Source: Variovorax sp. OAS795 (GTDB lineage Bacteria; Pseudomonadota; Gammaproteobacteria; Burkholderiales; Burkholderiaceae_C). Taken from it: DNA of 64,000 nucleotides. The number at the start of each line of letters is the position of its first letter. Within the stretch, counting starts at the first letter, position 1. The stretch lies in the NCBI RefSeq assembly GCF_040546685.1, contig NZ_JBEPOH010000001.1:248001-312000 (forward strand). The letters run 5' to 3'. The notes under the pieces are model-generated. The model had not been told where the DNA came from. It worked only from the letters and a program-made list of their open reading frames with translations, and searched no databases. Positions 9,303 to 47,837 of this stretch are shown here, in pieces. The translations under genes were made by a program, and so were the position numbers.

Positions 9303-10101
9303 CTTCAACAGCGACGTGGGCGAGAGCTACGGGGTCTACCGGCTCGGCGACGACGCGGCGGTGCTGGACCACGTGACCTCCGCCAACGTGGCCTGCGGCA
9401 TGCACGCCGGAGACCCGCAGACCATCGCCGCGACCGTCGCGCTGGCAGTCGCCCGAGGCGTGTCGATCGGGGCGCATCCCGGCTTTGCCGATCTCCAGGG
9501 ATTCGGACGGCGGCCGATGCAACTGGGGCGCGATGAGCTGCACCACCTGGTGGTCTACCAGATCGGCGCCCTGCAAGCCTTTTGCACGGCGGCCGGAACG
9601 CGCCTGGCGCACGTCAAGACACATGGCGCGCTCTACAACATGGCGGCGCGCGATCCGGCAATGGCGCGCGCTGTGGCGGACGCCGTGCGTGCCGTGGATC
9701 CGCAGCTGGTCTTCTACGGCCTTGCCGGGTCTGAGCTGGTCCGCAGTGCCCGGGAGGCGGGACTCGCCGTGGCCGAAGAAGTGTTCGCGGACCGCAGCTA
9801 CCAGGACGACGGCGCCCTGACGCCGCGATCGCACCCCGGTGCCCTGATCACCGACATCCGGCAATCCGTGGCGCAGGTGCTGCGCATGGTTCGCTCGGGC
9901 GTGGTGCGTTCGGTCCACGGCGTGGACGTGCCGGTGCGGCCCGACACGCTGTGCATCCATGGCGACCAACCCGACGCCGCAAATTTTGCGCGCGCGATCC
10001 GCCAGGCACTCGAAGCGGAGGGCGTGTCCGTTCGACCAGCGAGCCGACGCGCCATCGCCCTCGGGCCGGCTTCCCCCCTCACCCCTGGAGCCCACGCATG
10101 A
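9289..10101 (+). CDS. pxpA: PxpA (LamB/YcsF family) 5-oxoprolinase subunit
   Basis: This 270-residue LamB/YcsF-family protein opens IDFNSDVGESYGVYRLGDDA and has NVACGMHAGDPQTI and the later HVKTHGALYN, all conserved in the family. PxpA supplies the TIM-barrel subunit of prokaryotic 5-oxoprolinase. The start is the GTG at 9289, preceded by GGAGG at 9278-9282 inside pxpC, giving a 14-base overlap. It ends in an overlap with the biotin-carrier gene. Together with PxpB and PxpC it forms the core of this cassette. Confidence 0.9.
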   Translation: MASIDFNSDVGESYGVYRLGDDAAVLDHVTSANVACGMHAGDPQTIAATVALAVARGVSIGAHPGFADLQGFGRRPMQLGRDELHHLVVYQIGALQAFCTAAGTRLAHVKTHGALYNMAARDPAMARAVADAVRAVDPQLVFYGLAGSELVRSAREAGLAVAEEVFADRSYQDDGALTPRSHPGALITDIRQSVAQVLRMVRSGVVRSVHGVDVPVRPDTLCIHGDQPDAANFARAIRQALEAEGVSVRPASRRAIALGPASPLTPGAHA

Positions 10102-44518: not shown

Positions 44519-46144
44519 GTGTCTGCACAAGTCGATCGCTTCGTTCATGACCGCCTGCCGCCCGCCGGGCAGTTGCCGGTCTTCCGCTACGACCTTCCGG
44601 AGTTGCAGCTGCCCGACCAGCTGAACCTCGTCGAGGAGCTCCTGGACAAGGCGCCTGCGAAGGGTTTCGGCGACAAGCCGATGCTGCGCTCGCCCGCCGG
44701 CACGCTGACCTACGCGCAGGCCGCGCTCGAGGTCAATCGCATCGCGCAGGTGCTGACCGAAGACCTCGGCCTCGTGCCCGGCAACCGCGTGCTGCTGCGC
44801 GGCGGCAATTCGGTGGCCATGGCGTTGTCGTGGCTCGCCGTGGTGAAGGCAGGCCTCATCGCAGTCGCCACCATGCCGCTGCTGCGCGCCAAGGAACTGG
44901 GCGACATCATCGAGAAGTCTCGCCCCGTGGCGGCGCTGTGCGATGGCCGGTTGCTCGACGAACTCGTGCTCGCGCAACGGGACCATCCGGTGCTGGCCAC
45001 GGTGCTCGCGTTCAACAAGCCCGACGCACCCGATTCACTGTCGGCGCGCGCGGCCGCCAAGAGCGGCGTGTTCACCGCATGCCCCACGGCCTCGGACGAC
45101 ATTGCCTTGCTCGCCTTCACGTCGGGCACCACGGGCAAGCCCAAGGCGCCCGTCACCACGCACCGCGACGTGCTGGCGATGTGCGAAACCTGGCCGCGCC
45201 ATGTGCTGAAGGCGCGTAGCGACGACGTGGTGATCGGCTCGCCGCCGCTCGCCTTCACCTTCGGGCTCGGCGGACTGCTGGTATTCCCGATGTGGACCGG
45301 CGCCTCGGTGTACTTTGCCGATGCGCCTTTCACACCCGAGGGCTTGGTGAAGCTGATCAACGAAGTGGGCGCGACCATCTGCTACACCGCGCCCACCTTC
45401 TATCGCCAGATGGCGCCCTTCGTGCGCCAGCACGGCGCGCCGAGCCTGCGCATCTGCGTGAGCGCCGGCGAGGCGCTGCCCGACGCCACGCGGCAGCTGT
45501 GGAAGGAAGCCACCGGCATCGAGATGCTCGACGGCATCGGCGGCACCGAGGTGTTCCACATCTACATTTCCGCCGCGGGCGACCAGGTGCGCCGCGGCGC
45601 GGTCGGCAAGGTGGTGCCCGGCTTCACGGCCAAGGTGGTGGACGACCAAGGCAACGAAGTGCCGCGCGGCACCGTCGGCAAGCTGGCGCTCCAGGGGCCG
45701 GTGGGCTGCCGCTACCTCGACGATCCGCGCCAGTCCGATTACGTGAAGAACGGCTGGAACTACCCCGGCGACTCGTTCGTGCAGGATGACGACGGCTACT
45801 TCTTCTACCAGGCGCGTGCCGACGACATGATCATCACGGCCGGCTACAACGTGGGCGGGCCGGAAGTGGAGGATGCACTGCTCAAGCATCCCGCCGTGGC
45901 CGAGTGCGGCGTGATCGGCAAGCCCGACGCGGACCGCGGCATGATCGTGAAGGCCTTCTGCGTCCTGAAGCCCGGCGTCGATGGCGATGCCGCACTCGTC
46001 AAGGCGCTGCAGGACCACGTGAAGGCCACCATTGCGCCGTTCAAATACCCGCGGGAGATCGAATTCGTGCCGGTGCTGCCGCGCACCGAGACCGGCAAGC
46101 TCCAGCGATTCAAACTGAGACAACTCGACACCACCACATCATGA
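44519..46144 (+). CDS. Aryl-CoA ligase (benzoate/2-aminobenzoate-CoA ligase type)
   Basis: This 541-residue AMP-forming ligase has the P-loop FTSGTTGKPKAP, the aryl pocket region SPPLAFTFGLGGLLVFP, and the late motifs DGIGGTEVFHIYIS and ARADDMIITAGYNVGGPEVE, with the catalytic Lys in PRTETGKLQRFKLR. It activates an aromatic acid with ATP and CoA. The order of genes makes 2-aminobenzoate (anthranilate) the favoured substrate, with salicylate or benzoate as alternatives. The start is a GTG at 44519; the stop overlaps the RidA ATG. Confidence 0.9.
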   Translation: MSAQVDRFVHDRLPPAGQLPVFRYDLPELQLPDQLNLVEELLDKAPAKGFGDKPMLRSPAGTLTYAQAALEVNRIAQVLTEDLGLVPGNRVLLRGGNSVAMALSWLAVVKAGLIAVATMPLLRAKELGDIIEKSRPVAALCDGRLLDELVLAQRDHPVLATVLAFNKPDAPDSLSARAAAKSGVFTACPTASDDIALLAFTSGTTGKPKAPVTTHRDVLAMCETWPRHVLKARSDDVVIGSPPLAFTFGLGGLLVFPMWTGASVYFADAPFTPEGLVKLINEVGATICYTAPTFYRQMAPFVRQHGAPSLRICVSAGEALPDATRQLWKEATGIEMLDGIGGTEVFHIYISAAGDQVRRGAVGKVVPGFTAKVVDDQGNEVPRGTVGKLALQGPVGCRYLDDPRQSDYVKNGWNYPGDSFVQDDDGYFFYQARADDMIITAGYNVGGPEVEDALLKHPAVAECGVIGKPDADRGMIVKAFCVLKPGVDGDAALVKALQDHVKATIAPFKYPREIEFVPVLPRTETGKLQRFKLRQLDTTTS

Positions 46145-46539
46145 TGAACAAACTCTTGCAGCCACCGGGCTGGTTGCCCCCCAAGGGCTATGCGAATGGC
46201 GTGGCCGCGCGCGGTACCATGGTCTTCGTCGGCGGCCAGATCGGCTGGAATGCGCAACAACAGTTCGAGTCCGACGACTTCATCGACCAGTGCGGGCTCG
46301 CGCTGCGCAACATTGCAGAAGTGCTGCGTGCAGGCGGCGCGGGCCCCGAGCACATGGTGCGCATGACCTGGTACGTGACCGACCGCGACGAATACACCCG
46401 GCGACTGGCCGAACTCGGGCCGGTATACCGCGAGGCCATGGGGCGCAACTTTCCCGCCATGACCTGCGTGCAGGTGGCGGCGCTGGTCGAGCCGCGGGCC
46501 AAGATCGAGATCGAAGTCACGGCCGTCATTCCGGACTGA
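46141..46539 (+). CDS. RidA-family protein of the aryl-CoA cluster
   Basis: This 132-residue RidA protein has ARGTMVFVGGQIGWNAQQQF, MVRMTWYVTDRDEY with the substrate Arg replaced in context by Thr-Asp, and PRAKIEIEVTAVI. It overlaps the ligase stop by ATGA and is last in the cluster. In an anthranilate pathway the reduced ring carries an enamine; a RidA enzyme could hydrolyse it to the ketone plus ammonia. This role is inferred from context. Confidence 0.88.
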   Translation: MMNKLLQPPGWLPPKGYANGVAARGTMVFVGGQIGWNAQQQFESDDFIDQCGLALRNIAEVLRAGGAGPEHMVRMTWYVTDRDEYTRRLAELGPVYREAMGRNFPAMTCVQVAALVEPRAKIEIEVTAVIPD

Positions 46540-46560
46540 CCGAGGCGACGAGCCGACACG

Positions 46561-46590
46561 AACGCCCTCCTCGCGAGGGCGTTATTTTCT
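46561..46590 (+). terminator. Rho-independent terminator of the aryl-CoA cluster
   Basis: AACGCCCTC (46561-46569) and GAGGGCGTT (46575-46583) form a nine-base-pair stem with a five-base loop, followed by ATTTTCT. It lies 22 bases after the RidA stop. Confidence 0.85.
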
Positions 46591-46625
46591 GGAGTCTTCG
46601 ATGCCGGCGCCGGACAGCCCGGGGC

Positions 46626-47183
46626 TCAGGCCGGGCGCCCGGACGCACGCTCGAATGCCTCGCGTGTCTGCACCATGTAGACGGCGGGCCCGTCCGGCGT
46701 CGTCACCGTCTTCACCTGCACGAAACCTGCTTTCTCGTAGCAGCGAATGGCGCGTGCATTCTCCGGGGACGGGTCGGTCTGGATCTTTGTGACCTGCGGA
46801 TCGGCGAAGAGCAAAGCGACCATCGCACGCACGAGCTGGGTGCCGAGTCCCTTGTCCAGAAGCGACTCACTGCGCAGCGACTGGTCGATGCCGCGCACGC
46901 CCGGATCTGTCTCGTCCTCCCACCAGCCGTCGCCACTTCCCATTGCCACGTACGACTGCGCGTAGCCGATCGGCTCCTCTCCCAGCATGGCGATGTACGG
47001 GGTGACGGACGCTTCGGCCAGGACCTGCGGTGCGTACTGCGCACGGACCTCGGCAAGGGTAGGCCGCGCTTCGTCGCCGCCCCACCATCGGGCGATGTGC
47101 GGCCGGTTGAGCCATTCATGGAGCATAGAGAGGTCGTGCTCCGTCATGGGACGCAAAGTCACGGGTGGGTTGCCGGCGGACAT
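46626..47183 (-). CDS. Aminoglycoside 6'-N-acetyltransferase, AAC(6')-Ib-like (GNAT family)
   Basis: This 185-residue GNAT protein closely resembles AAC(6')-Ib of resistance integrons. Shared blocks include WWGGDEARPTL, EPIGYAQSYVA, GSGDGWWEDETDPGVRGIDQ and TTPDGPAVYMVQT. With a constant offset of 15, the remembered AAC(6')-Ib residues Asp115, Tyr164, Trp102 and Asp179 fall on Asp100, Tyr149, Trp87 and Asp164, so the catalytic pair is kept and neither cr-type substitution is present. The acetyl-CoA loop is KGLGTQL. ATG 47183 follows GGAGA at long spacing; a TTG further upstream is possible. The gene sits 40 bases beyond the tRNA/rplQ terminator, with no integrase or cassette site seen. Confidence 0.9.
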   Translation of the reverse strand: MSAGNPPVTLRPMTEHDLSMLHEWLNRPHIARWWGGDEARPTLAEVRAQYAPQVLAEASVTPYIAMLGEEPIGYAQSYVAMGSGDGWWEDETDPGVRGIDQSLRSESLLDKGLGTQLVRAMVALLFADPQVTKIQTDPSPENARAIRCYEKAGFVQVKTVTTPDGPAVYMVQTREAFERASGRPA

Positions 47184-47222
47184 CGACAATTGGCTTCTCC
47201 GAACCAAGACGAAGGACCAAAG

Positions 47223-47255
47223 AAAAAAGGCCCTTTGAAAATCAAAGGGCCTTTT
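47223..47255 (-). terminator. Rho-independent terminator after initiator tRNA and alpha operon
   Basis: A 13-base-pair stem (47225-47237 with 47243-47255) surrounds a five-base loop. On the minus strand the stem ends in TTTTTT. It starts 4 bases beyond the tRNA 3' end and should end the rplQ-tRNA transcript. Confidence 0.88.
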
Positions 47256-47259
47256 AAAT

Positions 47260-47336
<77 letters not shown>

Positions 47337-47354
47337 GCAAGATGGAATTATACC

Positions 47355-47753
47355 TTATTCGGCAGCGCCTTGTTCGGCTGCTTCTTCTTTAATTTCTGCA
47401 CGGTCGACCAGTTCGACGAGCGCCATGGGTGCATTGTCGCCAACGCGGAAACCCATCTTCAGGATGCGGGTGTAGCCGCCCGGACGCGCCGCGAAACGCG
47501 GGCCGAGTTCGCCGAAGAGCTTGACGACGCTGTCGCGGCTGCGCAGGCGGTCGAAGGCCAGGCGCTTGTTGGCGAGCGTGGGCTTCTTGGCGAGCGTGAT
47601 CATCGGTTCGATGACGCGGCGCAGTTCCTTGGCCTTGGGGACCGTGGTCTTGATGACTTCGTGCTCGATGAGCGAATTCATCATGTTCTGCAGCATCGCA
47701 AGGCGGTGCGAGCTGGTGCGGTTGAGTTTGCGGAGTCCGTGTCCGTGACGCAT
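47355..47753 (-). CDS. rplQ: 50S ribosomal protein L17
   Basis: This 132-residue L17 starts [20 protein letters not shown] and has [20 protein letters not shown], both diagnostic. It is last of the alpha-operon ribosomal proteins, 84 bases after rpoA. It has the usual length plus an acidic tail ([10 protein letters not shown]). The initiator tRNA lies 18 bases downstream. Confidence 0.98.
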
Positions 47754-47837
47754 GGTGCTTTCCTTTACTTTATTAAACAGGCAGCCGTATCAGGTACTGC
47801 CCGGTGCACGGGCCCTCATGGGCCCTCTTTCAAAAAA

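What the first reader, a model, noticed from the sequence alone, without database searches (positions are those of the whole stretch)
46626..47183. Chromosomal AAC(6')-Ib-like aminoglycoside acetyltransferase next to rplQ and initiator tRNA
The predicted protein matches remembered AAC(6')-Ib over almost its whole length. The active-site Asp and Tyr and the Trp and Asp changed in the -cr variant all align at one constant offset. It has no integron, integrase, attC-like dyad or transposon around it and sits in a conserved ribosomal neighbourhood. That makes it a candidate intrinsic gene of the kind from which the clinical cassette gene may have arisen, or an old capture.
Basis: partly seen in the sequence, partly recalled or inferred. 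Interest (0 to 1): 0.8.

Follow-up and report, generated by a model that had tools for sequence, protein, structure and literature searches.

The report
Captured aminoglycoside acetyltransferase gene in Variovorax
A Variovorax-like bacterium carries a lone gene for an enzyme that probably inactivates aminoglycoside antibiotics, set into a site that is empty in its relatives; following its kin points to large chromosomal integrons of Piscinibacter-like bacteria as a candidate source of the common hospital resistance gene aac(6')-Ib.

Summary
The gene is real: 46626-47183 (-), 185 aa, over the cut-off of the AacA4 model TIGR04431 (344.5 bits against 260), under that of AAC(6')-Ib (323 against 400), 77% identical to AAC(6')-Ib with wild-type catalytic and -cr positions. 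The intrinsic-progenitor reading is not supported. ridA, tRNA-fMet and rplQ are conserved neighbours in the genus (Variovorax, inferred), but aac is missing there in the 29 other genomes viewed, leaving a clean empty site; 3 of 101 genomes of the genus, the window's included, hold such a gene, the other two elsewhere. It is a ~0.6 kb single-gene insert of host-like composition sharing no flanking gene with any locus compared: most likely an old horizontal capture, perhaps a former integron cassette, though no attC, core site or integrase was found. By-product: a relative of clinical AAC(6')-Ib (85% aa) is a cassette in the superintegron of Piscinibacter gummiphilus, and 68 bp of the clinical attC occur unchanged on another cassette in a congener's superintegron. 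The attC type reaches 24 of 141 genera of the family: a candidate source, not proof.

The parts
46626..47183 (-). aac(6')-type gene, 185 aa (P0001), AacA4 family
46602..47214 (.). approximate extent (ends uncertain by about 10 bp) of the single-gene insert relative to the empty site of related genomes
   Evidence: comparison with L113-L140; coordinates worked out by hand from these
47225..47255 (-). intrinsic terminator behind the tRNA, upstream of aac
   Evidence: by eye present in 28 of the 29 other loci printed (not L141)
47260..47336 (-). initiator tRNA-Met (CAT)
47355..47753 (-). rplQ, last gene of the ribosomal cluster
   Evidence: name from the finding and recall
46561..46583 (+). terminator of ridA, native to the site
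46141..46539 (+). RidA-like gene (Pfam PF01042, 77.7 bits), native neighbour
44519..46144 (+). AMP-binding (acyl-CoA-ligase-like) gene (Pfam PF00501, 231.7 bits), native neighbour

Best explanation
The gene encodes a GNAT-fold aminoglycoside 6'-N-acetyltransferase of the AacA4 family, which would transfer acetyl from acetyl-CoA to the 6'-amino group of tobramycin/gentamicin-type drugs (inferred from family). It reached this Variovorax genome long ago as a single-gene DNA segment of about 0.6 kb, inserted between the terminator of the rplQ/tRNA-fMet transcript and the terminator of ridA (insertion: shown; date: inferred from composition and divergence). The carrier was probably an integron-cassette-like unit whose attC has been lost or was never brought in (inferred, weakly supported). 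With no sigma-70-like promoter found, expression probably rests on read-through of the rplQ/tRNA transcript (inferred).
For: Family: TIGR04431 344.5 bits against cut-off 260; 77% identity to AAC(6')-Ib with catalytic positions kept. Insertion: flanks at 87.6-92.6% (ligase/ridA side) and 92.9-96.9% (tRNA/rplQ side) nucleotide identity in the 22 of 29 other loci that keep both flanks, insert unmatched in 29 of 29; no aac at the site in any of the 29. Patchiness: 3 of 101 in the genus, 12 of 399 in the family over the cut-off, at least two of them (L146, L147) beside IntI1. No shared flanking gene with any locus compared. Age: aac codon adaptation at the 15.5th and GC3 at the 14th percentile of 129 host genes, GC 66.3% against a median of 67.5%, whereas three IntI1-linked copies (L142-L144) have GC3 0.57-0.64. 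Cassette ancestry: shares the 10-11 residue C-terminal tail ending at Ala(GCC)-stop with integron cassettes; a tail of 9-12 residues plus an RYY last codon is found in 9 of 24 representatives at or above 67% identity without class 1 label against 1 of 45 below; the 9 include the window and L150, itself an integron cassette.
Against: No attC found; GTT at -23 is followed by CGGA, not RRRY, and the stop heptamer is GCCTGAG, not RYYYAAC. The 3' flank resembles superintegron attCs no better than shuffles do (245 of 500 shuffles as good). The tail statistic counts related sequences, was devised after seeing the data, and the 67% threshold was mine. The composition also fits transfer from another high-GC betaproteobacterium at any date. 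94% and 90% relatives exist in metagenomes (P0002, P0003) whose surroundings could not be seen; they might show a conserved locus in an unsampled lineage. Only 29 of the 95 other genomes with an rplQ match were viewed at the site. Enzyme activity untested.
Confidence: 0.72

Rival explanations
1. Intrinsic progenitor: the gene has been vertically kept in the window's lineage and lost in the others; the clinical cassette came from genes like it.
For: Composition near host average; separate lineage with P0002/P0003 (support 100/96); a tree with the window lineage outside the other derived rows is not rejected (AU p 0.56).
Against: 3 of 101 genomes of the genus, at other places in the two others; empty site without visible remnants in the loci viewed; no shared flanks; genes nearer to AAC(6')-Ib exist elsewhere (85% in Piscinibacter gummiphilus, with the matching attC type, against about 78% for the window).
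Confidence: 0.12
2. Former integron cassette inserted by an integron integrase at a genomic secondary (attG-type) site, attC later lost; the mechanism is then integrase recombination and not generic recombination.
For: Single ORF insert without a recognisable promoter; C-terminal tail and Ala-stop shared with cassettes; cassette insertion into genomes at attG sites is reported (Loot et al. 2024, not held; seen only as described and cited in passages of PMC12901181 and PMC12444791).
Against: Neither the core site nor attC is recognisable; no integrase found in this genome.
Confidence: 0.35
3. Recent acquisition from clinical class 1 integrons.
For: Protein 77% identical to clinical alleles.
Against: At most 74.0% DNA identity to any of 3672 matching plasmid records; GC3 0.81 against 0.57-0.64; no integrase or attC found.
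Confidence: 0.01
4. The protein is a GNAT of another physiological function that resembles AAC(6').
For: No activity data; natural substrates of such environmental enzymes are unknown.
Against: Over the cut-off of an equivalog model; the nearest solved structures other than AAC(6')-Ib/Ib11 score 60.4 bits or less.
Confidence: 0.12

Closest known systems
AAC(6')-Ib / AacA4 (clinical class 1 integron cassette; PDB 2prb, 1v0c)
   Same: 77% amino-acid identity over almost the whole length; catalytic positions; C-terminal tail
   Different: about 72% DNA identity; below the NF033074 cut-off (323 against 400); no attC; the residue after Gln101 is Ser, as in most relatives (177 of 250 rows) and in some Ib copies, not the Leu of others
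AAC(6')-IIa (class 1 integron cassette, e.g. L142 of a Comamonas aquatica plasmid)
   Same: 77.5% amino-acid identity, 73.8-74.0% DNA identity; the same Gln-Ser pair, which by recall goes with gentamicin rather than amikacin acetylation
   Different: cassette beside intI1; GC3 0.64
AacA4-family cassette in the superintegron of Piscinibacter gummiphilus (P0122, L150)
   Same: 73% amino-acid identity to the window; chromosomal; Burkholderiales
   Different: an intact cassette in an array of more than 130 attCs of one type with its own integrase; 84-85% identical to AAC(6')-Ib
Xenophilus / Comamonadaceae chromosomal genes L034, L035, L043
   Same: 72-74% identity to the window, no integrase seen near them
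   Different: conserved flanking genes within that clade, GC3 about 0.9 for L034 and L035: a better model of a settled chromosomal gene
dfrB genes of Burkholderiales (PMC11662351; abstract, outline and passages seen)
   Same: Published parallel: an acquired resistance gene with chromosomal kin in Comamonadaceae, Variovorax included
   Different: unrelated protein; there the outline reports a consistent genetic context, here there is none

Membership tests
AacA4 family aminoglycoside N(6')-acetyltransferase (TIGR04431) | score over the curated cut-off of 260 bits | tested here: met
   344.5 bits, positions 1-181 of 184
AacA4 family aminoglycoside N(6')-acetyltransferase (TIGR04431) | catalytic and drug-binding positions (D115, Y164, D152, W49 in recalled Ib numbering) | tested here: met
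   D100, Y149, D137, W34 identical; the position I took for Ib Glu73 is Ala58 in the window and variable in the family (Glu in 154 of 250)
AacA4 family aminoglycoside N(6')-acetyltransferase (TIGR04431) | acetylation of aminoglycosides | not testable with these tools
   needs purified enzyme or susceptibility data
AAC(6')-Ib (NF033074) | score over the curated cut-off of 400 bits | tested here: not met
   323.1 bits
AAC(6')-IIc, AAC(6')-31, AacA40 (NF000135, NF000118, NF000048) | scores over the cut-offs of 415, 385, 400 bits | tested here: not met
   308, 307, 310.6 bits
AAC(6')-Ib-cr (fluoroquinolone-acetylating variant) | Arg at 102 and Tyr at 179 (recalled Ib numbering) | tested here: not met
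   W87 and D164
Integron gene cassette | attC behind the gene | tested here: not met
   none found (the scan succeeds in 13 of 22 loci with IntI1); flank no closer to superintegron attC than shuffles
Integron gene cassette | GTTRRRY core about 25 bases before the start codon | tested here: not met
   GTTCGGA at -23, two mismatches
Integron gene cassette | integron integrase in the genome | tested here: not met
   TIGR02249 without a match in G000 at E 1e-30; 3 of 101 genomes of the genus have one
Intrinsic (core or syntenic) gene of the genus | present in most congeners at the same place | tested here: not met
   3 of 101; 0 of 29 viewed sites
Source of the clinical aac(6')-Ib cassette (claim for the Piscinibacter-group superintegrons) | same attC type as the clinical cassette, native to the arrays | tested here: met
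   68 of 68 bp up to GTT identical in G311 on another cassette
Source of the clinical aac(6')-Ib cassette (claim for the Piscinibacter-group superintegrons) | attC type confined to this group | tested here: inconclusive
   wide pattern: 32 of 399 family genomes in 24 of 141 genera, but large counts only in g120 (234, 135) and g97 (28, 24), elsewhere 1-3; outside the family 2 of 208 with one copy each
Source of the clinical aac(6')-Ib cassette (claim for the Piscinibacter-group superintegrons) | near-identical gene resident there | tested here: not met
   closest resident gene is 84-85% (protein) and 82% (cassette DNA, 527 of 643 columns)

The most novel reading that the evidence does not exclude
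The clinical aac(6')-Ib cassette was assembled in, and escaped from, a superintegron of the Piscinibacter/Rhizobacter gummiphilus group of Burkholderiales, where its attC type is native and a sister cassette still resides; the window's lone gene is an old stray of the same gene pool, fixed in a Variovorax chromosome after losing its attC.
Probability: 0.35. Interest if true: 0.75.

Novelty: new member of a known kind. Interest (0 to 1): 0.5.

Why it matters
The window gene itself is one more environmental AAC(6')-type gene, useful as a reminder that a resistance-like gene in a conserved-looking place need not be intrinsic: the empty site in relatives decides. The by-product matters more. The source of aac(6')-Ib is not among those assigned in the attC study consulted here (PMC8352920, whose 11 models include no Betaproteobacteria). 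An attC that matches the clinical one base for base inside a Piscinibacter-group superintegron, with a related aac cassette in a congener, names a concrete group to sample, and makes the question of where this cassette came from directly testable.

Tried and rejected
Recent capture from clinical integrons: rejected. Intrinsic conserved gene: rejected at genus level. Fossil attC or core site at the window: looked for, not convincing. Position of the window lineage: two constrained trees, neither rejected, left open. One origin of the class 1 alleles: a set of six (L142, L143, L144, L022, P0010, P0110) as one clade is rejected (p 0.001), but only L142-L144 lie beside IntI1 in what I saw, the other three I added by cassette ends or source names, and these three alone are not rejected as one clade (p 0.31); so several origins are suggested, not shown. 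Viral carriers: one of three candidate stretches encodes a relative, 77% identical over residues 1-179, on an 85 kb contig, not followed except that its attC is the clinical Ib type. Substrate preference from Ser102: from recall only; paper search gave nothing useful. Structure prediction not run, as a 77% identical solved structure exists.

Rows dropped: L067, L095 and L165 (cut short by a stop codon), L081, L083 and L098 (duplicates), L101-L104 (30% identity), L040 trimmed to 190 residues; 244 rows collapsed to 146 representatives at 93%; the quick tree used 136, the careful tree 66 chosen by hand. The protein searches listed 120 of 2730 and 120 of 960 hits, genome contigs kept 80 of 99 relatives, and the rplQ search gave DNA for 30 of 96 genomes. 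Paper searches were seen as capped listings only, apart from the papers named.

Full report
WHAT IS THERE. An ORF of 185 codons lies at 46626-47183 on the minus strand. It scores 344.5 bits against the NCBIfam equivalog TIGR04431 (AacA4 family, cut-off 260) and 323.1 against the AAC(6')-Ib model (cut-off 400, not met); its best solved relatives are AAC(6')-Ib and Ib11 (310.5 bits). Identity is 77.7% to an AAC(6')-Ib-group copy (L013), 77.5% to AAC(6')-IIa, 73.6% to AAC(6')-IIc. The residue after Gln101 is Ser, the commonest state (177 of 250 rows of a redundant set; Phe in 45, Leu in 21); by recall this goes with the gentamicin-type rather than amikacin-type spectrum. It is the only member over the cut-off in the genome; a second place scores 41 bits.

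THE GENUS. G006 and G002 match the loci L070 (Variovorax boronicumulans NBRC 103145) and L021 (Variovorax paradoxus 110B) by identical contig coordinates, so I take the genus to be Variovorax (inferred).

THE SITE. rplQ is found in 96 of 101 genomes of the genus; DNA was returned for 30, one of them the window's. In the 29 others a tRNA-Met(CAT) follows rplQ at the same distance; in 22 of 29 the ligase-ridA pair lies next to it, in 7 (L120, L125, L127, L130, L133, L138, L141) other DNA does; in none is there an aac gene in the roughly 1.4 kb beyond the tRNA. In one search I gave ridA one base out of frame and corrected it; the DNA comparison does not depend on it. ridA and the ligase carry Pfam PF01042 (77.7 bits) and PF00501 (231.7 bits). 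The window keeps the tRNA terminator up to ...CTTTGGTC (47215) and the ridA side from about 46601; the roughly 613 bp between are extra (ends uncertain by about 10 bp). No target duplication or inverted ends were apparent by eye. No sigma-70-like promoter was found in 46500-47800, so read-through from the rplQ/tRNA transcript is the likeliest source of expression (inference).

DISTRIBUTION. Over the family cut-off: 3 of 101 genomes of the genus, the window's included, and 12 of 399 of the family. The other two Variovorax copies lie on other contigs than rplQ and show no ridA or rplQ in their 1.5 kb flanks. Sixteen further Variovorax genomes have a weaker relative (206-224 bits), whose flanks are shared within subgroups. 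The window locus shares no flanking gene with any locus compared (3 kb or what was held on either side). Host-like composition (15.5th percentile of codon adaptation, 14th of GC3, among 129 genes picked by a simple ORF filter) argues against recent capture, as do the plasmid searches (3672 records with a match, none above 80% identity).

THE TREE. With 184 columns the tree is weak. Robust: the window groups with P0002 and P0003 (100/96) and apart from the clinical alleles. Not settled: the window lineage outside the other derived rows (p 0.56) or with the AAC(6')-Ib group (p 0.77; the likelihood was higher than that of the free search).

WAS IT A CASSETTE? Class 1 copies mostly start about 25 bases after a GTTRRRY core and end with the stop inside RYYYAAC. 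The window has GTTCGGA at -23 and GCCTGAG at the stop, both two mismatches away, and no attC that I could find. It does share the C-terminal tail and Ala-stop of the cassette-bearing branch: tail of 9-12 residues and RYY last codon in 9 of 24 representatives at 67% identity or more without class 1 label (among the 9 the window, and L150, itself a cassette; L023 and L042 have core-like sites) against 1 of 45 below. This is suggestive and post hoc. A direct comparison of its 3' flank with superintegron attCs is at chance level (245 of 500 shuffles). Cassette insertion at genomic attG sites is a reported process (Loot et al. 2024, not held; described or cited in passages of PMC12901181, PMC11023631 and PMC12444791); I offer it as a possible mechanism, not a result.

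WHERE THE TRAIL LED. Among the relatives, L150 (genome G441) carries the gene between two attCs. In its 19 kb surroundings the scan finds 17 attCs of one type on the coding strand, missing the one directly behind the gene. The protein search gives a contig of the same 5,594,180 bases the name Piscinibacter gummiphilus; NCBI taxonomy files it as Rhizobacter gummiphilus, Sphaerotilaceae. The protein is 84.2% identical to the Ib copy L013 and 85.2% to the best of the Ib cluster, just ahead of L022 (85.1%, a Pseudomonas contig with an Ib-type attC) and L023 (84.0%); metagenome proteins of unseen surroundings come closer (P0053 and P0070 88.7%, P0097 96.6%). The whole G441 cassette agrees with a clinical one in 527 of 643 alignment columns. 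A narrow attC pattern of this array occurs in 6 of 11 genomes of that genus (231, 133+1, 49+12, 39, 2 and 1 copies; reversed control 0); an integron integrase over the cut-off is found in 8 of 11, in G441 about 1.1 kb from the first listed attC. The congener G311 has, in a 19.5 kb stretch with 27 attCs by the scan, one that equals the clinical aac(6')-Ib attC in 68 of 68 bases up to GTT; it stands behind a different gene with a GNAT domain (PF13302, 61.2 bits), and there is no class 1 integrase or aac in the stretch. Of 13 distinct attC-like sequences that the scan found in 22 loci with IntI1, only the Ib one matches the superintegron set well; the next genuine ones reach 44 of 60 columns, and one further row is the same Ib site read on the other strand.

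HOW SPECIFIC. The clinical spacing form occurs in 9 of 399 family genomes: four carry AAC(6')-Ib-group genes (G227, G324, G329, G354; 385-389 bits), two belong to the Piscinibacter group (G311 three copies, one of them the exact clinical core; G441 one), three (G125, G296, G299) have single diverged copies. In 229 genomes of the class it occurs in G227 only. These two patterns do not cover the commoner spacing of the superintegrons. The wider pattern finds the attC type in 32 of 399 family genomes and 24 of 141 genera, with high counts in g120 (G311 234, G441 135) and g97 (G296 28, G196 24) and 1-3 copies elsewhere, and in 2 of 210 genomes drawn from the class, both outside the family, one copy each. 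So the type belongs to integrons of this family at large; the exact clinical form outside AAC(6')-Ib carriers was seen only in G311.

LIMITS OF THAT CLAIM. No near-identical aac was found in such a superintegron; of the 11 genomes of the genus only G441 has a member over the cut-off. AttCs could also have been exchanged by recombination. PMC8352920 (Ghaly et al. 2021; section 7 seen whole, other passages) assigns 29 of 108 resistance cassettes; aacA4 is not in its table and does not occur in the main text, and its 11 models include no Betaproteobacteria. In the listings of my searches I saw no earlier report; only open-licence papers are held, listings were capped, and the one hit proved to be a chance word match.

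OTHER READING. PMC10400643 (abstract and passages) reports that 24 of 28 tested new mobile aminoglycoside-modifying enzymes were active in E. coli, which supports function here in general terms only. The dfrB study PMC11662351 (abstract, outline and passages) is a parallel for Burkholderiales as sources of resistance genes.

Noticed in passing
L172 (G441:C1:3952000-3971000), aac at 9331-9879; L150: AacA4-family cassette, 84-85% identical to AAC(6')-Ib, inside the superintegron of Piscinibacter gummiphilus; 17 attCs of one type found in 19 kb.
   Followed up: yes
L198 (G311:C1:5091500-5111000), minus strand, attC at 9821-9892 of the reversed locus: An attC equal to the clinical aac(6')-Ib attC in 68 of 68 bases up to GTT, behind another gene with a GNAT domain, among 27 attCs.
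   Followed up: yes
G196 and G296 (genus code g97): A second genus of the family with 24 and 28 copies of the wider attC type.
   Followed up: no
L034, L035, L036, L043, L151, L152: 72-74% relatives (representatives L034, L035, L043) in Xenophilus and related Comamonadaceae with shared flanking genes and (L034, L035) GC3 about 0.9: the best candidates here for a settled chromosomal AAC(6')-Ib-like gene.
   Followed up: partly
L085-L100: Sixteen Variovorax genomes carry a 53-57% relative below the family cut-off, with shared flanks within subgroups.
   Followed up: partly
DNA behind tRNA-fMet in L120, L125, L127, L130, L133, L138, L141: The tRNA-fMet/ridA junction is variable: 7 of 29 loci have other DNA, in L141 directly behind the CCA end, without the usual terminator.
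   Followed up: no
L178 (viral contigs, 85 kb contig): A 77% relative with the clinical Ib-type attC on a contig filed as viral.
   Followed up: no
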